Shown: positions 9,450-63,852 of the stretch, piece by piece
Layout: each line of letters starts with the position of its first letter
Position numbering within the stretch: the stretch's first letter is position 1
NCBI RefSeq assembly: GCF_018139625.1
Contig: NZ_JAGSOH010000002.1
Span: 62,001-126,000 of the forward strand
Length of the DNA: 64,000 nt
Direction: 5' to 3'
DNA from: Actinospica acidithermotolerans
GTDB lineage: Bacteria; Actinomycetota; Actinomycetes; Streptomycetales; Catenulisporaceae
Notes under the pieces: generated by a model
What the model saw: only the letters and a program-made list of their open reading frames with translations
Told to the model about the DNA's origin: nothing
Databases searched by the model: none
Made by a program: the position numbers and the translations under genes

Positions 9450-9862
9450 CAGGCCACCGCCCGCAGGTGCTCGATCCCGACGAGCGGGTGCAGTGCGCGG
9501 CCGTGCCAGGCGGACATCCGGCCACCGCCCCGCAGATGCTCAAGCACGACGAGCGGGTGCAGTGCGCTGCCGTGCAGGGCAGCCATCACGCCCCAGTTCC
9601 GCACATGCTCGACCACCCCGAGCGGGTGCAGTGCGCGGCCGTGCCAGGCGGACATCCGGCCACCGCCCCGCAGATGCTCGACCACGACGAACGGGTGCAG
9701 TGCGTGGCCGTGCCGGGCGGACATCCGGCCACCGCCCCGCACATGCTCGACCACGACGAGCGGGGGCAGTGCGCGGCCGTACCGGGCGGACATCACGCCC
9801 CAGCTCCGCACATGCTCGACCACGACGAGCGGGTGCGGCGCGTGGCCGTACCGGGCGGACAT
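9449..9862 (-). CDS. Open reading frame made of six 69-bp tandem repeats between yraN and comM
   Basis: 137 codons, six 23-residue units, with ATGs at 9862, 9793, 9724, 9655, 9586 and 9517. Each unit reads like MSARYGRA (resembling the ComM start MAGYGRA) joined to LHPLVVVEHLR (resembling the YraN end HPLVAIEHLRAVA). The last unit still ends in HLRAVA-stop overlapping the comM ATG exactly as the yraN stop overlaps the first unit's ATG. Inner copies carry one added G (CGGGGCGG for CGGGCGG) and TGA changed to GGA, so the frame stays open. Whether a protein is made is unknown; tight coupling at both ends (TGATG) makes translation possible. It could equally be non-functional repeat DNA. Confidence 0.6.
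   Translation of the reverse strand: MSARYGHAPHPLVVVEHVRSWGVMSARYGRALPPLVVVEHVRGGGRMSARHGHALHPFVVVEHLRGGGRMSAWHGRALHPLGVVEHVRNWGVMAALHGSALHPLVVLEHLRGGGRMSAWHGRALHPLVGIEHLRAVA
9449..9862 (-). repeat. 69-bp x 6 tandem repeat spanning the yraN/comM junction
   Basis: Unit boundaries recur every 69 bases (68 in the last copy, which keeps the original stop/start overlap). The repeat contains the yraN 3' end and comM 5' end, with point changes and one-base insertion in the inner copies. Copy divergence shows it is a genuine, aged array. Confidence 0.93.
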
Positions 9863-10242
9863 CAGGCCACCGCCCGCAGGTGCTCGATCGCGACGAGCGG
9901 GTGCGGCGCGCGGGGGTCGAGGCGGACGGCGACGACGTCGATGCGCACGGAGCGGCGGGCGGCGGGATGCTCGCGCAGCCAGAGGACCGCGAGCCGGCGC
10001 AGCCGGGCGGCCTTATCGGGGGTGACCGCCTCGGCCGGGTGCGCGAGCGCGGCGCCGGTGCGCGTCTTGACCTCGCAGACGACCAGCGCCCGCCGGTCCC
10101 GCAGCACGAGGTCGAGCTCGCCGGGCCCCTCGGCCGCCGGGCTGCGCCAGTTCCGGTCGAGGACGCGGTACCCGCGCCCCTCGAGGTACCGCCGGGCCGC
10201 CTCCTCGCCGAGACGGCCGATCCGGATGTTGCGGCTGGTCAA
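9862..10242 (-). CDS. UPF0102 (YraN-like) endonuclease-fold protein
   Basis: 126 residues. It has the family core GRLGEEAARRYLEGRGYRV, DRNWR, GELDLVLRD and VVCEVKTRTG: the acidic D...E-x-K pattern of a restriction-endonuclease-like fold (GELDLV plus EVKTR). The start is TTG 10242, supported by GGGGAGGG a few bases upstream and by family alignment (TSRNIRIGRLGEEAA). YraN-like proteins neighbour dprA/comM and rnhB in many actinomycetes; a role in DNA processing is inferred, not proven. The C-terminus HPLVAIEHLRAVA is the source of the downstream repeats. Confidence 0.9.
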   Translation of the reverse strand: MTSRNIRIGRLGEEAARRYLEGRGYRVLDRNWRSPAAEGPGELDLVLRDRRALVVCEVKTRTGAALAHPAEAVTPDKAARLRRLAVLWLREHPAARRSVRIDVVAVRLDPRAPHPLVAIEHLRAVA

Positions 10243-49827: not shown

Positions 49828-50553
49828 ATGAACGGGACGCGACCCGAGGCGCGGATCCTGGTGGTCGACGACGAGAACTCGATCACCGATCTTGTCGGCC
49901 TGGCGCTGCGCTACGAGGGCTTCGAGGTGGCCAGTGCGGCGAACGGCCGTACCGCGCTCGCGGCCGCCGCCGAGTTCGGCCCGGACCTGCTGGTGCTCGA
50001 CGTGATGCTGCCGGACTTCGACGGGCTCGAGGTCTGCTCGCGGCTGCGCGCGCAGGGGCTGCGGGTGCCGGTGGTCTTCCTGACCGCGCGGGACGCCACC
50101 GAGGACAAGATCACCGGGCTGACGGTCGGCGGGGACGACTACGTCACCAAGCCCTTCTCGCTGGACGAGCTGATCGCGCGGATCCGGGCCGTGCTGCGGC
50201 GGACCAGGCCGGAGGCCGAGCAGGTGCGGCTCGGCTACGCGGACCTGGTCATCGACGAGGACGCGCACGAGGCCCGGCGCGGCGGCGAGGCGATGGAGCT
50301 GACGCCGACCGAGTTCAAGCTCCTGCGGTTCCTGACCCTGAACGCGGGCCGGGTGATGTCGAAGGCGCAGATCCTGGACCACGTCTGGCAGTACGACTTC
50401 GGCGGCGGCGACAACGTCGTCGAGACCTACATCTCCTATCTGCGCAGTAACCCCCGCTATGTACATAGTACCGGGCGAGATGGCCTGTATCAAGGCTCTG
50501 GTGAGCTTGAATGCAGGTCACAGGGCTGGGGCGGGGTGCGGGCCAGGGCGTGA
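49828..50553 (+). pseudogene. OmpR-family response regulator, C-terminus replaced (disrupted)
   Basis: 241 codons. The receiver domain is intact: LVVDDENSITDLVG, VLDVMLPDFDG (phosphoacceptor D58), FLTARDATEDK and DDYVTKPFSLDE. The DNA-binding domain runs through MELTPTEFKLLRFLTLNAGR to VVETYISYLR at residue 206 (base 50,445). The expected wing (typically RKID...IHTVRGVGY) is absent, replaced by SNPRYVHSTGRDGLYQGSGE and a non-homologous tail with AT-rich third codon positions. A protein may still be made, but it should not bind DNA normally. The normal 3' end probably lies at the other end of the inserted element. Confidence 0.85.
50446..50470. other. Putative left attachment junction with 12-bp palindrome
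   Basis: CTGCGC (regulator sequence) is followed by AGTAACCCCCG and palindrome CTATGTACATAG. The exact crossover cannot be set without the empty site. Confidence 0.5.
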
Positions 50554-51394: not shown

Positions 51395-51592
51395 CTAGCG
51401 TGCCTGTTTGCGCCGGTTGAGGGCATGGCTGAGCCGGGCTGTCGCCTTGATCCGGGCCATGGTGAGGGCTCGGATGACGACTGCCGATGTGAGGAAGTAC
51501 GCCGTGATCACTGCGGCGAAGACGGTTAATGCGAGTTCGGCGGGGACTCGGATCAGGGCGGGTATGCGGTAACGGGGTGAGCCGTCGTTCAT
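51395..51592 (-). CDS. Small single-span membrane protein
   Basis: 65 residues from ATG 51592, with GAGGA about seven bases upstream. One membrane span (LTVFAAVITAYFLTSAVVIR) and a basic C-terminal tail (ARIKATARLSHALNRRKQAR), suggesting the tail is cytoplasmic. No family recognised. It is separated from the graspetide-like ligase by two hairpins. Confidence 0.55.
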   Translation of the reverse strand: MNDGSPRYRIPALIRVPAELALTVFAAVITAYFLTSAVVIRALTMARIKATARLSHALNRRKQAR

Positions 51593-51784: not shown

Positions 51785-52753
51785 CTACTCGGGTGAGGGG
51801 GCCTTGGTGAGGGCGCGGGCGATGGCGTCGGCGATGTCGTCGGAGACTTCGTCGATCCATGCCCATTGCCCGTTGGCGTTGATTTCGAGGAACCACCAGG
51901 TTCCGGCCTTGTCGATCAGGAAATCCAGGGCTCCGTAACGCAGGTTCATTCGCCGCATGAGCTGCCGAACGCTGTCAGCGACTGCGGGCGGCGGCTGGAC
52001 GCGCTTGTACGTCAGTGAGTCCTGATCTGATCGCCAGTCGAGCCGGGCGGCTGGTGAGCCGAAGTGGATTTCGGCGGCGAACAGCTCGTCGTCCACGGCG
52101 GTGAGCCTGACGGCGTGCTCCGCGTTGATCCACCGTTGGAACTGGTGGGGTATCCCGAGCAGGCTTGCCGAACGGATCTCGTCGGCGCGCAGTCGTCGGG
52201 TGTAGATGGCTTCCTGTTCGCCCTCGGGGCCGAGAAACGCGGCTGTTCCGAAGGACTTGACCGCGACTTCCCCGCCGACCTGCGCGGCGAAGTGCGCGGC
52301 GTGCGCGGTGTCTCCGGTGACCATGGTCGCGGGGACGGTGAGGCCGCACGCGTCGGCGAGCACGAGTTGCCAGGGCTTTGAGCGCTGGACGGCGAGCAGG
52401 GTTGCCGGATGGCCGAGCCAGAGGTGTTCTGGGAGCGCGGCGAGGACTCCGCCGAAACCGAGAGTGATCTCTTTCTCGACGAATCCGTCTCGGCCGGGCG
52501 AGCCGTGTCCGGTGACGCGCGGGGTGGACGGGCGCCGATAGTAGACGCCGGTGATCTCGCGGAGCGTCGTGGTGCGGCTGCCGACGCGCAGGATTCCGGC
52601 CCACTCGCCGCCGTTGAACTGCGCGGTCATTCCGGCGCCTGCCGGAAAGTCGGCGTAGTCCAGTCGAATGACGGGAGTATCCAGCTCGCGAAGCTTGACG
52701 ATGACGCGGTCGGCGGTGATGTCCTGGCGCTGGGTCAGGATCAGCGCGGGCAC
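51785..52753 (-). CDS. ATP-grasp peptide ligase (graspetide maturase, SAV_5884-like)
   Basis: 322 residues from GTG 52753. The N-terminal pre-ATP-grasp fold (MPALILTQRQDITADRVIVK; GVYYRRPSTPRV) matches the ATP-grasp ribosomal peptide maturase family that also includes MvdD and TgmB. Nucleotide/metal residues: K166 (VAVKSFG), E/Q pair QRW (IPHQFQRWIN), D277 (YGALDFL), E290 and N292 (FLEINANGQW). It would form ester or amide crosslinks between Ser/Thr or Lys side chains and Asp/Glu in a precursor. Only two bases separate it from the precursor gene, with AAGGACGAGGA in the precursor's end as ribosome-binding site. Confidence 0.85.
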   Translation of the reverse strand: MPALILTQRQDITADRVIVKLRELDTPVIRLDYADFPAGAGMTAQFNGGEWAGILRVGSRTTTLREITGVYYRRPSTPRVTGHGSPGRDGFVEKEITLGFGGVLAALPEHLWLGHPATLLAVQRSKPWQLVLADACGLTVPATMVTGDTAHAAHFAAQVGGEVAVKSFGTAAFLGPEGEQEAIYTRRLRADEIRSASLLGIPHQFQRWINAEHAVRLTAVDDELFAAEIHFGSPAARLDWRSDQDSLTYKRVQPPPAVADSVRQLMRRMNLRYGALDFLIDKAGTWWFLEINANGQWAWIDEVSDDIADAIARALTKAPSPE

Positions 52754-52755
52754 GG

Positions 52756-52989
52756 TCAGTCGTCCTCGTCCTTGATGTTGTCGGTCACGGAGGTGGAGGT
52801 GGTTCCGGCGATGAAGTCGGGAACGGTGTGCGCGGGGGTGTCGGTGCCCTTGATGACGAGGATCTGAAGGGCCTCGTCCCAGTCGGTGGCGGGCAGTTCG
52901 GTGGTGGGGATGGTCTGGGTGCCGCGCAGGATCAGCGGCAGGGCGGTCTCGGTGTCGGTGGGCGTGTCGTGCTGGAGGGTGGGGGACAT
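52756..52989 (-). CDS. Candidate graspetide precursor peptide
   Basis: 77 residues from ATG 52989, GGGAG eight bases upstream. N-terminal 60 residues form a leader-like part (LPLILRGTQTIPTTELPATD then WDEALQILVIKGTDTPAHTV). The C-terminus T63 to D77 (TTSTSVTDNIKDEDD) has six Ser/Thr, one Lys and six Asp/Glu-type side chains, exactly the chemistry joined by ATP-grasp ligases. It has no Cys and no membrane segment. It is unlike the usual TgmA precursor (no PxGLR-like leader motif), so it may define a different subgroup. Recognition is by context and composition. Confidence 0.65.
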   Translation of the reverse strand: MSPTLQHDTPTDTETALPLILRGTQTIPTTELPATDWDEALQILVIKGTDTPAHTVPDFIAGTTSTSVTDNIKDEDD

Positions 52990-53041
52990 TGCCTTGACTC
53001 CCTGGTGTTGGGTGGCCGCGACACCGGGCGGTGGCGCGGGG

Positions 53042-53575
53042 CTAGAGGGGCATCGACAGGGCTTTAAGCGCGTTCCGGCCGCGTTCGGTGCGGGGCTGGT
53101 AGACGGCTAAGAGCGCTGCGGCATCCGAAAGGGCTTTGATCCGCTCGTCGGGGCTGACGCGGCTGAGAACGTGTTGCGCTGCGGGAACGCCGTTGCCTGC
53201 GCATGTGGCGGGGCACGCGTCGAACGCGGCGGTAGCCGCTGCCACGAATGCCGGGCCGGGAATCGGGGCGCCGGGCTTGGTGGGCTCGGTCCCGAGTCCT
53301 TCGGGTAGGAACGGCTCACGTCCGCTCGTTGGAACGGGCGTGGTCATCGCGTGAGTGACTGCGAGGATTTCGGCCGTGTAGGCGACCAGGGCTGAGCACA
53401 CGAACACGTCATCGCTCGCGTCATCGATCGCCGCATCGAGGCAGGCGGCGCAGCCGTCTGCGATCGAGTAACAGATCTCTGCGGCGGCGGGCAGGGCGGG
53501 ATAGCCCGGGAACCCGGGAAACCCCAGGTTGAACGCGGGCTGTGTCCGGTGTACGTGGTCGGCTGTCCTGGTCAT
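53042..53575 (-). CDS. Unknown cysteine-containing protein in RiPP cluster
   Basis: 177 residues from ATG 53575 (AAAGGAG ten bases upstream, chosen over 53,620). Cys sit at EICYSIADGCAACLDAAIDD, DVFVCSALVAYT and DACPATCAGN, seven in total, mostly within helices, which could bind metal or form disulfides. Gly/Pro-rich N-terminal section (LGFPGFPGYPALPAAAEICY). No family recognised. Placement between the JmjC-like gene and the precursor gene suggests a role in precursor handling or as a second peptide. Confidence 0.6.
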   Translation of the reverse strand: MTRTADHVHRTQPAFNLGFPGFPGYPALPAAAEICYSIADGCAACLDAAIDDASDDVFVCSALVAYTAEILAVTHAMTTPVPTSGREPFLPEGLGTEPTKPGAPIPGPAFVAAATAAFDACPATCAGNGVPAAQHVLSRVSPDERIKALSDAAALLAVYQPRTERGRNALKALSMPL

Positions 53576-53599
53576 CGGCTGATTGCTCCTTTGGCGAGT

Positions 53600-53645
53600 C
53601 TCGGGCGCGCTGGACCGCACTTGGTGTCAGTATCGCGCGCCCGAG
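53600..53645 (-). promoter_or_regulatory. Hairpin between JmjC-like gene and Cys protein gene
   Basis: Perfect 11-bp stem CTCGGGCGCGC / GCGCGCCCGAG with a 24-base loop. It may be a partial terminator or mRNA stabiliser inside the operon. Confidence 0.45.
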
Positions 53646-53666
53646 TCCCGCCCCGGTGGCGAACCC

Positions 53667-55040
53667 TCAGGCGGCCGTCGCGATGGCTACCGGCTCGGAG
53701 GGCGCGGCGGTGGTGTAGATCGTGTGCCTGCACAGGGTGAATTGGATGTGCCTGCTGTGTCCGGGCTCGCCCGGTGTGGCGGTGGCGTGCACGACGCCTT
53801 CGGGGATCAGCAGCACGTCACCGGCCTGGGTGGTGTACTGCTGCTGATCGGCGCCGGGGTTGATGGTCCACGTCTTGGCTCCGTCCATCTGGACGATGAC
53901 CGAATACCACTCGTCGGTGTGCGCGCCGGGGGTCTCGTCCTGGGGACGGGAGTCGAAGACGGCGGCGAGCACTTCGAGCTTGCTTCCGGATAGGCGGGCG
54001 AGGTAGGCGGCGGCGTGGTTGAGCCACGCCATGGTGTGGTGTGCGCGTTCGAAGACCCACGTGCGCGGTTGGGCGTTGTAGGCCTCGATCAGTTCGGCGC
54101 GGTCGGTGTACCGGGCGGCGGTGCTGAAGCTGAGCGTGACCATCTGGCCGTCCGGAATCTCACTCCGCGTGGGCAAGGGGAGGTCGGCGAGGTATTCCGG
54201 CTTGAAGACGCGCCGGTAGATCGCGGCCCGCTGATGGTCGGGGCGCGGACCGCCCGCCCGCCTGATGTACTCCCACAGGCTCGCGGTGAACGTGGCCGCG
54301 CGCGACTGTTCCTCGTCGGTGGCTTCAAGCGTCACCGGCTGCACGAAAGCGGCCGTGGGGTCGGGAACGGTCGGCACGAAGTCGTCTTCGCCGTCTCCGA
54401 CGTAGATCGGCAAGTCGCTGCCGGGCAGCGTGACGCACTTGTGCCTCTGCGCCGGGGCGAGCGCGGGCTCTGCCGTCGCGTCGGCGTCGAGGTTTTCGCG
54501 GTAGAGGTCGCGGCCCTGGTAGGTGCCGACCTTGCGGATTCGGGCCGTGTCGGCGGCGAGCGGCGGGACGTTGAAGGTCGCGCGGTCACCGGTGTACCAG
54601 CTGCCGCCGCTGTCGTCGGGCAGGCAGTGATGGCTCGTGACGGCCGCGACGCTGGAGTGCACGATGTAGCTGGTTATGTCGTTGACGGTCTCGGTCCAGT
54701 GGGCCACGGCGTTTGGCGCGTCCTTGGGGTCGGCCGACGTGTGCAGCGGTTCGGGGCCGGGAACGCGAACGTAGGAGTCCGTACCGTCGTCCCCGGTGAC
54801 GACCTGGTGAACGTCGGCGTCTGCGGCAGGCGGGCTGCCCGCGCTCGCGCTCATGGCGGCGACTCCCTGAATCGCCTGGTAGACGTACCCTCCCGCGGCC
54901 GTGGTGTCTACGGGCTGGGCGTTGATCCAGCGGTAGTCGCCGTTTTCGAGGTTGATGTGACCCCGGATCGCGGTCGGCTCGTGGGGCGGCTCGTCTACGG
55001 GCGATGGCGGGGTGAACGGCTCGGTTTCGGCTATGGTCAC
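53667..55040 (-). CDS. JmjC/cupin-type Fe(II)/2-oxoglutarate oxygenase-like protein
   Basis: 457 residues from GTG 55040. The C-terminal part has the metal triad H374-x-D376 (GAHTDEWYSVIVQMDGAKTW) and H418 (AGDVLLIPEGVVHATATPG), plus the core strand region typical of JmjC/cupin-like hydroxylases. The first 250 residues are not recognisable. Jumonji-type enzymes hydroxylate proteins or peptides, so action on the RiPP precursor is a natural inference, not shown. The 2-oxoglutarate lysine could not be pinned down. A hairpin precedes the gene. Confidence 0.7.
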   Translation of the reverse strand: MTIAETEPFTPPSPVDEPPHEPTAIRGHINLENGDYRWINAQPVDTTAAGGYVYQAIQGVAAMSASAGSPPAADADVHQVVTGDDGTDSYVRVPGPEPLHTSADPKDAPNAVAHWTETVNDITSYIVHSSVAAVTSHHCLPDDSGGSWYTGDRATFNVPPLAADTARIRKVGTYQGRDLYRENLDADATAEPALAPAQRHKCVTLPGSDLPIYVGDGEDDFVPTVPDPTAAFVQPVTLEATDEEQSRAATFTASLWEYIRRAGGPRPDHQRAAIYRRVFKPEYLADLPLPTRSEIPDGQMVTLSFSTAARYTDRAELIEAYNAQPRTWVFERAHHTMAWLNHAAAYLARLSGSKLEVLAAVFDSRPQDETPGAHTDEWYSVIVQMDGAKTWTINPGADQQQYTTQAGDVLLIPEGVVHATATPGEPGHSRHIQFTLCRHTIYTTAAPSEPVAIATAA

Positions 55041-55075
55041 AGTAATCCGTTTCTCTGGCGGATGTGGGTTGGTGG

Positions 55076-55117
55076 CCCCCGGTCCGCTGTGGGTGCGCGC
55101 CTACGGCGGACCGGGGG
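55076..55117 (-). promoter_or_regulatory. Hairpin upstream of JmjC-like gene
   Basis: Perfect 12-bp stem CCCCCGGTCCGC / GCGGACCGGGGG, 18-base loop, 36 bases before the start. It could terminate the ATPase transcript or act as a leader structure. Confidence 0.5.
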
Positions 55118-55208
55118 TGTCTAAGGGGCCTGGCATTCGGCATACCGTGGCGGTGTCCCGCGCTGCGGGATGCCTTCAACTACGCCGCGCCGGGCCGGGT
55201 GGCGGCGG

Positions 55209-55940
55209 TCAGGAGACCTCGACCTTGATGCGCCGGATCGAGTCTTCGAGCTGTTCGCGGGCGGCGAGGCTGGCGACGCACGCGGATGGCGCGGGTAGCC
55301 TGCTCGGGATGGCCGGTCGTGCCTGCGGGCGCGCTCCCGGCTTGCACTGGGCGCGGCGCGGCAGAGGTACGTACATCTCAGGCTCCTGAGTAGCAAGGTC
55401 GGGGCGCGGGCTCGGGCGGACGGCGGTGACAGGGGTAGCGGGGGTCACCTCGTCCGGGTCCAGCGGCTCATGCGCGGGCTCCGCGCTTCTGGGGCGTGGA
55501 GGCTGGCGGAGCTTGAGCGCGAACCACACCGCTTTGCCGTCGTGGGCGAGGTATCGCGCAGGCTCGGGACGGCATCCCCACTCGTCGGCAAGCTCGCTGA
55601 CCAGGATCAGGCCGCGTCCGCTCTCGCTGTCCGCGTCGGACTGCTGGACCACAGGCATATCCGGGCTGTGGTCCAGCACTTCGACGCGAAGTTCCGAAGC
55701 GGTGACGCTGGCGCGTACGACGATGAACCGGCCCCAGTGCCGTCCGAGCAGACGCGACGTGGCTAGGACGGCGTTGGTCACCAGCTCCGAGCCGAGCAGT
55801 AGCGCGCGCTCTGCCGCGTCGTCCTCGACTCCCCACAGGTCGCAAAGCTGGGTGATGAACCGGCGACCGAGGCCGGGGGCGTCGGTGTAGGCGCCGAGAT
55901 TGACGCCGTAGGTGGTGCCGTCGATCGCGAGAACGCTCAT
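55209..55940 (-). CDS. GHKL ATP-binding protein (RsbW-like anti-sigma family)
   Basis: 243 residues. The HATPase_c_2 domain occupies the first 150: N-box ERALLLGSELVTNAVLAT, G1-like SGRGLILVSELADEWG. The last 90 residues are Pro/Arg-rich and possibly unstructured. Such ATPases bind sigma or anti-sigma partners; Streptomyces has dozens of them. The start overlaps the preceding gene (ATGA). Its link to RiPP regulation is unclear. Confidence 0.8.
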   Translation of the reverse strand: MSVLAIDGTTYGVNLGAYTDAPGLGRRFITQLCDLWGVEDDAAERALLLGSELVTNAVLATSRLLGRHWGRFIVVRASVTASELRVEVLDHSPDMPVVQQSDADSESGRGLILVSELADEWGCRPEPARYLAHDGKAVWFALKLRQPPRPRSAEPAHEPLDPDEVTPATPVTAVRPSPRPDLATQEPEMYVPLPRRAQCKPGARPQARPAIPSRLPAPSACVASLAAREQLEDSIRRIKVEVS

Positions 55941-56452
55941 TGCTCCCGCTCCTCAGGATTCGAGATATTCGAGACGTTGGTGTCGGCGTAGAGCCGGGTG
56001 GTGCGGTTGCCGTCATCGTCGGCGTCGCAGCGCCACTCGATGACGTAGTGGCCGAGCATCCTGAAGCACATCGCGAGATCGTTGCGGGACCGGTGGAGGT
56101 CGGGGGTTGCCGTGCCGTGGTCGGTCAGTTCAACCAGCACGCGCGGGCTCTCCCAACCAACGGTGACCGTCGCAGGGCCTTTACTGTCGTGGACCGCGAG
56201 CCACAGGGCGAAGTCATCGGCTGCCTGGCTGATGAACATGGTTGCAACGTCGTCGTTGAGGCGCGGACGCAGCCAATTGCCGACGATGCTCTCGGTGCGG
56301 TCGCCTTCGTCCTCCAGCGACAGCAACGGCTCTGAGTACACGTCAGCAGCGGGAGACAGGTACGCGGTGGACTGCACCTGTTCGGCGCCCGAGGTCGCAT
56401 CGATTTCACGCGTCGAATCCACGGTGTCGCTCGGAGTGGTCGAGCTGTTCAC
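55937..56452 (-). CDS. Degenerate GHKL-like protein paired with the ATPase
   Basis: 171 residues from GTG 56452 (GGGGAG four bases upstream; a TTG at 56,464 is possible). WLRPRLNDDVATMFISQAAD and RVLVELTDHG look like the ATPase alpha/beta core, but the G1 and G2 boxes are missing, so ATP binding is doubtful. Probably a partner or decoy for the downstream ATPase. Starts divergently from the HTH gene. Confidence 0.6.
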   Translation of the reverse strand: MNSSTTPSDTVDSTREIDATSGAEQVQSTAYLSPAADVYSEPLLSLEDEGDRTESIVGNWLRPRLNDDVATMFISQAADDFALWLAVHDSKGPATVTVGWESPRVLVELTDHGTATPDLHRSRNDLAMCFRMLGHYVIEWRCDADDDGNRTTRLYADTNVSNISNPEEREQ

Positions 56453-56664
56453 AGAGCTCCCCAACGTAGTCAGATGTTCGGATGCATTTGCAGGCGCAAC
56501 GGCGCTACGATGAAACCGCCCCTGACTGACGGAGCGTCACGCCGACACTCTCAGAGTGCTACCGCTCCACGGAGCACTTCAAGAAGCGCTCCGCGATTTT
56601 GCCGATTCTTTACGCTGCCGCTTGCACGCGGCATGCCAGACTGGCCGCGAAGGGAGTGATCGGA

Positions 56665-57501
56665 ATGGCCTTCACGGCTAGCTCGGCGCAGAGGGCACTC
56701 GGGGAGCGGCTGACCCAGTTACGCAAAGACAGCGGTTGGACACATCGGGACGTCAGGCGCGAGACGGGGATTCCAAGCGCGAACCTCAGCCGCATGGAGA
56801 ATGCCAAGGGGCCGGTGAATACAGGTGAGCTTCGGCGGCTTCTTGAGGCATACGGACAGGACGAGAGCGAGATTACGCGGCTCCTGGAACTGGCGCGTGA
56901 TGGCGTCACCGATGCGTGGTGGGAGCGCTGGAGTCGGTTCCTGCATCAGAGCTTCGTGGAATTTCTCGCGTACGAGAACGACGCGCGCGAAGCATGGGCC
57001 GTACAAACGATGTTCGTGCCCGGCCTGCTGCAAACGGAAGACTACATCAGGGCACTGCACGCGGTCGGCCATGTGCGTGATCGGCGCCGCAACGATGTTG
57101 ACCTTCAAGTGCGGCTACGGCGTCAGCGCAGGCTGACGGAGCCAGATCCGCTTGTGCTGCACGCTCTTATGGCCGAATCGGTGTTGCACTGGCAAATCGG
57201 GGGCAACAGCGTATTGGCTGGGCAGTTCCGTCACCTCATCGAACTGAACCAGCGGGACCATATCCACATTCGAATCATCCCGTTCAGCAAGCCCATCGAC
57301 ATCTACCCGATCGACTACATGATTCCCGCGATCGGTGATCCGGTGGCCTTCCCTGAGACTCAATGGGGCACGCCAATGAACGATGACCCCATTGATACCG
57401 AAGACACGCGCTACCACATCGAGCGTTACGAAGACGTAGCGCTGTCTGAGGAGGAAACATCGCAACTGCTTGAGCAGCGGATCAGAGAGCTGGAGAAATG
57501 A
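56665..57501 (+). CDS. XRE-family regulator with DUF5753
   Basis: 278 residues from ATG 56665 (GGGAG eight bases upstream). HTH: ALGERLTQLRKDSGWTHRDV, IPSANLSRMENAKGPVNTGE. The remaining 200 residues are the DUF5753 domain (VQTMFVPGLLQTEDYIRALH). These regulators pair with DUF397 proteins in Streptomyces (for example BldB-like and WhiJ-like sets). Next gene overlaps by four bases. Divergent from the ATPase genes, which it may control. Confidence 0.92.
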   Translation: MAFTASSAQRALGERLTQLRKDSGWTHRDVRRETGIPSANLSRMENAKGPVNTGELRRLLEAYGQDESEITRLLELARDGVTDAWWERWSRFLHQSFVEFLAYENDAREAWAVQTMFVPGLLQTEDYIRALHAVGHVRDRRRNDVDLQVRLRRQRRLTEPDPLVLHALMAESVLHWQIGGNSVLAGQFRHLIELNQRDHIHIRIIPFSKPIDIYPIDYMIPAIGDPVAFPETQWGTPMNDDPIDTEDTRYHIERYEDVALSEEETSQLLEQRIRELEK

Positions 57502-57698
57502 TCAAGAACCAGTGGCACAAGGCCGAGGCGTCTAACGGCGCTTCGAACTGCGTCGAAGTCATGGAGACCGACCACGGTGGTTTCCTCGTCCGGGACACTA
57601 AGGACAAGGGCACTGGCCCGGTCCTGAGCTTCACGCGCGGCGAGTGGGCCGCGTTCCTGAAGGGCGTCAAGCTGGACGAGTTCGAGCCGTCGAAGTGA
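57498..57698 (+). CDS. DUF397 protein
   Basis: 66 residues: IKNQWHKAEASNGASNCVEV, then FLVRDTKDKG, FTRGEWAAFLKGVK. The W-x-K-A-S-x-S-x-x-x-C-V-E pattern is diagnostic for DUF397. It overlaps the HTH gene and probably modulates it. Confidence 0.94.
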   Translation: MIKNQWHKAEASNGASNCVEVMETDHGGFLVRDTKDKGTGPVLSFTRGEWAAFLKGVKLDEFEPSK

Positions 57699-59297: not shown

Positions 59298-60026
59298 TTA
59301 GCTCACGGGCACAGGAGCGGTGATGTGCCGGATGCCGGGGCCGGTGGTGATTTCGGTCTCGGTCATGAGCAACCGGCCTTCGGCGCTGCGGGTGTAGCGG
59401 GTGATCTCGATGAGCGGCGCGCCTTTGGGAACGCCGAGTTCTAGCGCCTGGTTCGGGTCGGCGCCGATGGCTTGGAAGCCGTATTCCTCGGTGAGCGGGC
59501 CGAAGTGCTTGTTGAACAGGGTCACCAGCTCGGCGCGGGTCATCTCGAACGGCATGGGGCTGGGCTCGATGCCGAAGAACACTGACGCGGGCATGACGCG
59601 GGCGGTCAAGACCTTCTGCCCGGTGTCCTCGCGGGTGGCGGGACGTTCGGTGATGAACATCATCATGCGCTTGGGGACGTCGAAGAGTTCTGCGGTCTCG
59701 GCGTCGGCATAGTCGCGGCGCGCAAACGGGTCCTTGGTCGGGATCAGGGTGTCCCATGGGTCGCCGGGGATGCGCGGGATGTTGCGCACGGTCTCGCTCG
59801 GGAAGGACCCGATTCCTCGGACGGTGTAGATCAGGCCTTGGCCGCGCAGGGCGCTGATAGCAGCGCGCACGACGTTGCGTGAGACGCCGTAACGCTCCAT
59901 CAGCTCGTGTTCGCTGGGGAGCGGCTGGCCGAGTGGGAATGATCCGTCGCTTAGGGAAGTGCGCAGACGGGAGACGATCTGCTCGGTGAGGGTGCTTCGC
60001 ACGATGGGGCCGTCGTCGTCGGCCAT
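59298..60026 (-). CDS. GntR-family regulator (KorSA-like, UTRA domain)
   Basis: 242 residues. Winged helix at residues about 10-75 (TEQIVSRLRTSLSDGSFPLG; LPSEHELMERYGVSRNVVRA; LRGQGLIYTVRGIGSF) and a UTRA effector domain (about 90-235; LIEITRYTRSAEGRLLMTET). KorSA proteins repress transfer of actinomycete ICEs. It is divergent from the tra operon, with repeated operator-like sites in between. Confidence 0.9.
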   Translation of the reverse strand: MADDDGPIVRSTLTEQIVSRLRTSLSDGSFPLGQPLPSEHELMERYGVSRNVVRAAISALRGQGLIYTVRGIGSFPSETVRNIPRIPGDPWDTLIPTKDPFARRDYADAETAELFDVPKRMMMFITERPATREDTGQKVLTARVMPASVFFGIEPSPMPFEMTRAELVTLFNKHFGPLTEEYGFQAIGADPNQALELGVPKGAPLIEITRYTRSAEGRLLMTETEITTGPGIRHITAPVPVS

Positions 60027-62496: not shown

Positions 62497-63852
62497 ATGC
62501 ACACGTTGACTAGTCCGGGGCTGTACTTCCTGGGCGTGGTCGCGGTGTGGCTGCTGGCGGGCGCGGTGCTTCGGCACCGCTCCCCCGTCTGGCACTGGTA
62601 CATCGTCGGCTATCCCCTGACGTGGTTCCGGATCACGCGCACGTGGCGCCCGCTGTGCATTGAGCGGGGCCTGTCGGTCTCGCGCCGGGCGTCTCAGGCG
62701 GTGATCGGTGACCTGATCGTGCGCGGTCAGGAGGTGCGGCCGGTTGTCCCTCGGCTGTGGATCGGGCGCCCGACGCGTACCGGTCTGGTGGTGCGGGTCC
62801 GGCTGATGCCGGGTCAGACCCCTGAGGAGTACGCGCAGTCCGCTGAGGCGCTGATGCACGCGTGGCGTGTATACGCGGTGCGGATCACCTCGCCGGAGCG
62901 GGGCCTAATCCACATTGAGGCGCTGTTGTCGGACCCTCTGGCGGGGGTGGTGGTACGCAACCCTGACGCGCGGCGCGCGGGTACCACTGCCCCGGCTGGG
63001 CCTCCGGTGATGGTGCTGGTGGTCGGGGTCACCGAGCGGGCGAAGTCGTGGCTGATGAATTTCCGGCTCGTGCCGCACTGGCTGATTGTGGGTGCGACGC
63101 GGTCCGGTAAAAGCACGCTGATTCATGCGATCGTCACGCGGTTCGCGCCGCAAGGGGTCGCCATCGTCGGCATCGATCTGAAAGGCGGGCTCGAACTCAG
63201 CGTGTACCGGCCGCGCCTGTCGGGCCTTGCCACGACACGGCAAGAGGCCGTGGAGATCCTGGAAGCGTTGGTCGAGTTGAAGGACGAGCGCACGCACGCC
63301 TGCAACATGGCGGGTGTTCGTCAGGCGTGGGAGTTGCCGGAACCGCCCCCGCCCGTGGTGCTGGTGATCGACGAGGTAGCGGAACTGTTCCTCGTGACCA
63401 GCAACCGGGACCGGGAAGAGGTGGCGCTGCGCGACAAGACGGTGGCGCTGCTGGTCAAGCTCGCGCAACTGGGCGCGGCGCTGGATATCCATGTGATTGC
63501 GGGCGGCCAGCGGTTCGGCAGTGACCTCGGGTCCGGGGCGACGCTGCTGCGCTCTCAGCTCTCGGGCCGGGTGTGCATGCACGTCTCCGACGGCGAGACG
63601 GCGGTGATGACGCTCGGCGATATCTGGCCTGAGGCGGTGGTCACTGCCCAGATGATCCGAGCGGATGAGCAGGGCACGGCTGTTACCGGCGACGGTGAGG
63701 GCTCGTGGGTCCGCGCTCGGGCCATGTTCACGGGCGTGGACGAGGCGGCGGATGCCGCACGCATCTACTCCCGGATCACGCCGGTTCTGCCCGGGATCAA
63801 GCGGCCGTACTTCGTGGATCTCCCCCCGGACTCGGAAGGGGGTGAGGGCTGA
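62497..63852 (+). CDS. traB: TraB/TraSA-type FtsK-family DNA translocase
   Basis: 451 residues. An N-terminal membrane anchor (LYFLGVVAVWLLAGAVLRH), then the FtsK/SpoIIIE motor with Walker A GATRSGKSTLIH (199-207) and Walker B VVLVIDEVAELFLV (about 287-293), and VIAGGQRFGSDL further on. Moves double-stranded plasmid DNA between hyphae without relaxase in actinomycete conjugation. The winged-helix gamma domain of chromosomal FtsK is not evident; the DNA-recognition helix could not be located. GGAGAGGAGGGG ribosome-binding site. Confidence 0.92.
   Translation: MHTLTSPGLYFLGVVAVWLLAGAVLRHRSPVWHWYIVGYPLTWFRITRTWRPLCIERGLSVSRRASQAVIGDLIVRGQEVRPVVPRLWIGRPTRTGLVVRVRLMPGQTPEEYAQSAEALMHAWRVYAVRITSPERGLIHIEALLSDPLAGVVVRNPDARRAGTTAPAGPPVMVLVVGVTERAKSWLMNFRLVPHWLIVGATRSGKSTLIHAIVTRFAPQGVAIVGIDLKGGLELSVYRPRLSGLATTRQEAVEILEALVELKDERTHACNMAGVRQAWELPEPPPPVVLVIDEVAELFLVTSNRDREEVALRDKTVALLVKLAQLGAALDIHVIAGGQRFGSDLGSGATLLRSQLSGRVCMHVSDGETAVMTLGDIWPEAVVTAQMIRADEQGTAVTGDGEGSWVRARAMFTGVDEAADAARIYSRITPVLPGIKRPYFVDLPPDSEGGEG

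What the first reader, a model, noticed from the sequence alone, without database searches (positions are those of the whole stretch)
51785..56452. Undescribed-looking graspetide cluster with JmjC-like oxygenase in a mobile element
A 77-residue precursor with a Ser/Thr-, Lys- and Asp/Glu-rich C-terminus is coupled to an ATP-grasp ligase of the MvdD/TgmB/SAV_5884 family, behind a JmjC-type protein and a cysteine-containing unknown. The precursor leader does not resemble TgmA, and I know of no characterised graspetide with a JmjC-type tailoring partner.
Basis: partly seen in the sequence, partly recalled or inferred. Interest (0 to 1): 0.72.

Follow-up and report, generated by a model that had tools for sequence, protein, structure and literature searches.

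The report
Graspetide cluster with JmjC oxygenase, mobile
A mobile DNA element in an actinomycete carries a small gene set that probably makes a ring-linked peptide and, unusually for this peptide class, includes a JmjC-type enzyme that probably adds an oxygen atom; it is a new version of a known kind of peptide pathway, seen only once so far.

Summary
The operon is real. On the minus strand it encodes a HATPase, a JmjC-type protein, a Cys-containing orphan, a 77-aa precursor and an ATP-grasp ligase, with a divergent XRE-DUF5753/DUF397 pair. The ligase is a long-branch graspetide synthetase (TIGR04187, 1e-97; nearest intact relatives about 43% identical). In 29 of 35 related loci a PIMT methyltransferase (the graspimiditide hallmark) directly follows the ligase; here it is missing, and a JmjC protein with intact HxD...H and the 2-oxoglutarate lysine sits upstream. 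No other close JmjC relative, and no JmjC_2 gene in 61 other ligase-bearing genomes, lies near a graspetide ligase, so the pairing is a singleton supported by operon structure alone. The carrier is exactly delimited: a 17.8-kb pSAM2-type AICE splitting a response-regulator gene, with the site empty in two congeners. Other 2OG oxygenases (corallotide, SmaO) and a JmjC RiPP hydroxylase (BipG) are known, but no JmjC graspetide was found in the literature held. Verdict: new variant of a known kind.

The parts
51785..52753 (-). ATP-grasp graspetide synthetase (TgmB/SAV_5884-like), 322 aa; LDWRSD (DxR-type) and EINANGQW motifs intact
   Evidence: PF21068 1e-9, TIGR04187 1.1e-97 (327 bits, cut-off 350); ~43% identity to the nearest intact relatives
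52756..52989 (-). 77-aa precursor; leader LPLILRG...WDEALQILV...TPA, likely core GTTSTSVTDNIKDEDD (residues 62-77)
   Evidence: profile of relatives' precursors: E 8.7e-4, rank 1 above 2000 shuffles and all window ORFs (the only other hit near it is the same frame listed from stop to stop); RBS AGGGAG; 2-nt gap to ligase
53042..53575 (-). Orphan 177-aa (192-aa from GTG 53620) helical protein with six Cys (35, 42, 45, 60, 121, 125)
   Evidence: no match in Pfam, NCBIfam, PHROGs, PDB or plasmids; low-confidence all-helical model
53667..55040 (-). JmjC_2-type Fe(II)/2OG oxygenase-like protein, 457 aa; H374, D376, K389, H418; N-terminal 240 aa unmatched
   Evidence: PF08007 6.5e-7; profile match to MINA53 1.3e-7; Foldseek best matches NO66, MINA53, YxbC (model mean pLDDT 45, cupin core about 60-89)
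55209..55940 (-). HATPase_c_2 protein (anti-sigma-like ATPase), 243 aa
   Evidence: PF13581 1.7e-8; homologues beside related graspetide loci
55937..56464 (-). 175-aa ORF, perhaps a degenerate HATPase_c_2-like protein (by eye only)
   Evidence: no Pfam match; overlaps the HATPase start by 4 nt
56599..57501 (+). XRE regulator with DUF5753
   Evidence: PF19054 1.1e-37, PF13560 2.3e-13
57498..57698 (+). DUF397 protein, 66 aa
   Evidence: PF04149 9.1e-20
51395..51592 (-). 65-aa ORF with one hydrophobic stretch, downstream of the ligase where relatives carry the PIMT gene
   Evidence: sequence; no Pfam match
50440..50446 (.). attL: 7-bp repeat CTGCGCA at the left end of the AICE; the copy at the right end is window-equivalent 68284-68290, outside the window
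   Evidence: joined flanks align without a break to intact genes of two congeners
49828..50446 (+). 5' part of the response-regulator gene interrupted by the element (its 3' end and a histidine kinase follow the right end)
   Evidence: PF00072, PF00486 truncated at profile position 55/77
59298..60026 (-). GntR/UTRA regulator (KorSA-like position)
   Evidence: PF00392 8.6e-17
62497..63852 (+). FtsK/SpoIIIE-type transfer ATPase of the AICE; RepSA (1.7e-137) and a large serine integrase (2.1e-12) follow beyond the window at equivalent 64721-66145 and 66433-68241
   Evidence: PF01580 2.5e-18

Best explanation
This is a PIMT-less relative of the actinobacterial graspimiditide-type graspetide clusters, carried as cargo of a pSAM2-type AICE. 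The ligase binds the leader of the 77-aa precursor and joins the Thr/Ser run (T63-T69) to the acidic tail (D74, E75, D76, D77) by side-chain esters, possibly also K73 by an amide, giving a stem-loop peptide (inferred from relatives). The JmjC-type protein, a Fe(II)/2-oxoglutarate oxygenase by its residues, hydroxylates the peptide. The core has no His or Arg (the residues that ribosomal oxygenases use), so the likely targets are D70 or N71 in the presumed loop, or K73. The orphan Cys protein is a candidate partner. The XRE-DUF5753/DUF397 pair and the HATPase regulate expression. Shown: gene content, intact motifs, precursor and ligase homology, absence of PIMT, element boundaries. Inferred: crosslinks, hydroxylation and its site, the orphan's role, regulation.
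For: Ligase family and placement among PIMT-linked relatives; precursor homology and its 2-nt spacing from the ligase; same-strand order with short gaps between JmjC, orphan, precursor and ligase; HxD...H plus Lys aligned to MINA53 and Foldseek to NO66/MINA53/YxbC; regulator setting as in graspetide groups 11 and 13 (PMC13097080, PMC8939145); a close JmjC relative beside a lasso-peptide gene set (L047); JmjC RiPP hydroxylase precedent BipG (PMC12707348); 2OG oxygenase precedent in graspetides, corallotide (PMC13097080).
Against: The JmjC-ligase pairing occurs once: none of the other close JmjC relatives, and none of the JmjC_2 genes in 61 other ligase genomes, is near a graspetide ligase, so conservation does not back it. 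The ligase has a long branch (1.03). The cupin fold match rests on a model with mean pLDDT 45.
Confidence: 0.55

Rival explanations
1. A working graspetide cluster in which the JmjC protein and the orphan have a separate function (for example acting on each other or on a host protein) and merely share the AICE cargo region.
For: No recurrence of the pairing; two JmjC relatives (L047, L062) instead share a conserved ~113-aa upstream protein (48% identity), suggesting that the family can have its own partner unrelated to graspetides.
Against: JmjC, orphan, precursor and ligase are contiguous on one strand with gaps of 2-91 nt.
Confidence: 0.3
2. A decaying graspetide cluster: PIMT lost, ligase drifting on a long branch, JmjC and orphan as leftovers, no product made.
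For: PIMT missing; ligase end branch 1.03; possibly degenerate HATPase-like ORF.
Against: No stops or frameshifts in any gene, strong GC3 bias; ligase, JmjC metal and 2OG residues intact; precursor core still rich in donors and acceptors.
Confidence: 0.1
3. The 77-aa ORF is not a precursor but a chance ORF, and the ligase acts on something else.
For: No curated family matches it; no tblastn relative in plasmids.
Against: Best profile score against 2000 shuffles, GC3 0.95, RBS, 2-nt spacing, same position as relatives' precursors.
Confidence: 0.05

Closest known systems
Graspimiditides (group 13 graspetides: fuscimiditide, amycolimiditide, albusimiditide)
   Same: TgmA-like precursor with Thr run then acidic tail, TgmB-like ligase, XRE-DUF5753/DUF397 and HATPase neighbours
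   Different: No PIMT homologue next to the ligase; JmjC protein and orphan Cys protein instead; short divergent leader
Corallotide (group 15 graspetide; CorC, PF13640 2OG oxygenase; PMC13097080)
   Same: Graspetide ligase plus a Fe(II)/2OG-type oxygenase in one cluster
   Different: CorC is a different 2OG family (PF13640), Corallococcus-restricted, large repeat precursor, beta-lactamase-like partner
SmaO/SmaX group 18 graspetide oxygenases (as cited in PMC13097080)
   Same: Oxygenases in a graspetide cluster, acting on Asp
   Different: Not described there as JmjC; act on the linear N-terminal part, in another graspetide group
BipG of the biphenomycin pathway (PMC12707348)
   Same: JmjC-domain 2OG oxygenase that hydroxylates a RiPP precursor
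   Different: Another RiPP class (MNIO and radical SAM), Orn as target, no ATP-grasp ligase; not sequence-compared here
MINA53/NO66/YcfD ribosomal oxygenases
   Same: HxD...H plus 2OG lysine, JmjC_2 fold
   Different: Act on ribosomal proteins at His or Arg; the core here has neither residue; shorter loops and an unrelated N-terminal half
pSAM2-type AICE
   Same: RepSA, FtsK-like transfer ATPase, GntR regulator, site-specific integration
   Different: Large serine integrase and a response-regulator gene as target instead of a tyrosine integrase and a tRNA gene

Membership tests
Graspetide biosynthesis | ATP-grasp ligase of the MvdC/MvdD/SAV_5884 type | tested here: met
   PF21068 over cut-off, TIGR04187 1.1e-97 though 327 < 350 bits; tree
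Graspetide biosynthesis | Adjacent precursor with donor (Ser/Thr/Lys) and acceptor (Asp/Glu) residues and a family leader | tested here: met
Graspetide biosynthesis | Side-chain ester or amide crosslinks (-18 Da each) | not testable with these tools
   needs coexpression and mass spectrometry
Graspimiditides (group 13) | PIMT homologue beside the ligase, making an aspartimide | tested here: not met
   no PIMT in the window's cluster; only a distant PIMT-like match on another contig of the genome; 29 of 35 related loci have one adjacent
Graspimiditides (group 13) | TgmA-like leader and Thr...Asp core | tested here: met
   (profile includes the annotated tgmA of L088)
JmjC (JmjC_2) Fe(II)/2OG oxygenases | HxD...H metal triad and 2OG-binding Lys as in MINA53 | tested here: met
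   H374, D376, K389, H418, invariant in four relatives and aligned to MINA53; that the Lys binds 2OG in MINA53 is from own knowledge
JmjC (JmjC_2) Fe(II)/2OG oxygenases | Hydroxylase activity | not testable with these tools
   biochemistry needed
AICE (pSAM2 type) | RepSA-type replication protein, FtsK/SpoIIIE transfer protein, integrase, site-specific insertion with direct repeats | tested here: met
   empty site in two congeners
AICE (pSAM2 type) | Excision and transfer | not testable with these tools
   needs PCR and mating

The most novel reading that the evidence does not exclude
The JmjC oxygenase replaces the PIMT functionally: it hydroxylates the Asp or Asn (D70-N71) in the loop of the crosslinked stem-loop peptide, the position where graspimiditides carry their aspartimide, defining a new graspetide subgroup with JmjC hydroxylation.
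Probability: 0.15. Interest if true: 0.6.

Novelty: new variant of a known kind. Interest (0 to 1): 0.42.

Why it matters
If the JmjC protein acts on the precursor, it would be the first JmjC-type tailoring of a graspetide and a further kind of oxygenase in the class. It would also show that the PIMT step of the commonest actinobacterial graspetides can be lost and another modification gained, on a transferable element. The pathway is short and directly testable in E. coli.

Tried and rejected
Orphan as a degenerate four-helix Cys bundle (DUF326-like): looked so by eye, but Pfam to E 10, PDB sequence search and PHROGs gave nothing and the model had pLDDT 44; dropped. Scans of genome contigs: none for the JmjC, five ligase relatives only. 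JmjC in viral contigs and phages: none. Precursor relatives by tblastn in plasmids: chance only. Orphan in ten genomes: only weak chance matches besides itself. The family search for PF08007 over whole genomes missed the window's own JmjC at E 0.001, so its 'none nearby' result covers typical JmjC_2 proteins only; the profile searches cover the divergent ones, in samples of genomes.

Full report
Setting. The window is part of an actinomycete contig of 184,565 bp (window = contig bases 62001-126000). The cluster sits on a mobile element. The left end lies inside an OmpR-type response-regulator gene at 50440 and the right end at window-equivalent 68284, where the missing 3' end of that gene (YLRKKVDRDRVPLIHTVRGVGYSLR) and a histidine kinase gene resume. 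A 7-bp repeat CTGCGCA marks both ends. Joining the flanks gives a sequence that aligns without a break across the junction to intact genes in two genomes of the same genus (85% and 91% identity). The element is 17,844 bp. It carries RepSA (1.7e-137), an FtsK/SpoIIIE transfer ATPase (2.5e-18) and a large serine recombinase next to the right end (2.1e-12), plus a GntR regulator: a pSAM2-type AICE that uses a serine integrase and a protein-coding target. Element G+C in the window is 67.4% against 71.1% for window bases 1-48000.

The operon. On the minus strand: a 175-aa ORF, HATPase, JmjC-type protein, orphan, precursor, ligase; on the plus strand, divergent, XRE-DUF5753 and DUF397. Gaps: 2 nt precursor-ligase, 52 nt orphan-precursor, 46 nt JmjC-orphan from the long start (91 nt from the ATG start), 168 nt HATPase-JmjC. 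Ribosome-binding sites are visible for the orphan (AAAGGAG before ATG 53575), the precursor (AGGGAG) and the HATPase (GAGGAGCGG).

Ligase. It matches PF21068 and TIGR04187. Among 51 ligases it sits on a long branch inside the actinobacterial set, near L057 (forks 91/84 and 93/92; not starred), so its exact place is uncertain. In 29 of 35 related loci a PIMT homologue directly follows the ligase; in the window none does, and the genome's only PIMT match is a distant one on another contig. Loss of the PIMT is the simplest reading; it is an inference.

Precursor. ORFs directly upstream of relatives' ligases share a pattern: a P(F/W/Y)G..R leader motif, a (Y/D)D...Q segment, a G.P segment, a Thr/Ser run, an acidic tail. 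A profile of 31 of them, including one annotated as tgmA, scores the window precursor at E 8.7e-4, first among 2000 shuffles; the only other sequence near it is the same reading frame listed from stop to stop. The window sequence keeps LPLILRG, WDEALQILV, TPA and GTTSTSVTDNIKDEDD. It is therefore a divergent member of the known precursor family, not an unrelated leader.

JmjC protein. The C-terminal half aligns with three other proteins; H374, D376, K389 and H418 are invariant. A profile of the four matches MINA53 at 1.3e-7 and NO66 at 1.7e-4, and in the printed MINA53 alignment these four positions pair with H, D, K and H. The predicted model is poor overall (mean pLDDT 45) but its cupin core (about 60-89) best matches NO66, MINA53 and B. 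subtilis YxbC. I take it as a Fe(II)/2OG hydroxylase by sequence. The contexts of the four differ: the window; L046 (radical SAM and TPR neighbours); L047 beside a lasso-peptide-like gene set (Asn-synthetase-like, PqqD-like, protease-like and ABC transporter genes; the protease and synthetase assignments are by eye); and a Streptomyces halstedii plasmid. L047 and L062 share a ~113-aa protein just upstream of the JmjC gene (48% identity).

Recurrence. JmjC relatives were sought in 294 genomes of the order and 395 of the class by sequence and in 392 of the order and 296 of the phylum by profile. None of the close relatives, nor eleven next-closest loci examined with flanks, has a ligase nearby. 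Conversely, the JmjC_2 genes in 61 other ligase-bearing genomes all lie far from the ligase positions. The pairing is a singleton here.

Literature. A 2026 survey of 21,584 predicted graspetides in 43 groups describes 2OG oxygenases in groups 15 and 18, oxygenases at low frequency elsewhere, and DUF397/DUF5753 neighbours in groups 11 and 13; its main text does not mention JmjC (PMC13097080). No held paper contains both 'graspetide' and 'JmjC'; supplements were not searched. BipG is a JmjC RiPP ornithine hydroxylase (PMC12707348). [quoted passage not shown]

Reading. The most likely mechanism is a stem-loop graspetide hydroxylated by the JmjC protein. The graspetide part is strong (I would put it near 0.9 alone); the link of the JmjC to the peptide rests on operon structure and motif integrity. 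I set 0.55 for the whole.

Noticed in passing
window 50440 to contig-equivalent 68290 (L059, L060): A 17.8-kb AICE with a large serine integrase inserted in an OmpR-type response-regulator gene, splitting it from its 3' end; the site is intact in two congeners (L091, L092).
   Followed up: yes
L047:9291-9632 and L062 (about 9514-9870): A conserved ~113-aa protein (48% identical) directly upstream of a JmjC-type cupin in two unrelated Streptomyces loci, one beside a lasso-peptide-like gene set; might be a partner or a substrate of the cupin.
   Followed up: partly
L056:8001-8371 (Nocardiopsis endophytica): A ligase fragment 61% identical over residues 203-319, followed by a PIMT; the upstream part looks lost or frameshifted.
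   Followed up: no
L038, L050, L051 (genome G015): Three closely related ligases without adjacent PIMT and with short upstream ORFs (MNRLSC...LPLDTP...) that do not fit the usual precursor pattern.
   Followed up: no
window 55937-56464: A 175-aa ORF that looks by eye like a degenerate HATPase_c_2 protein overlapping the true HATPase gene.
   Followed up: no
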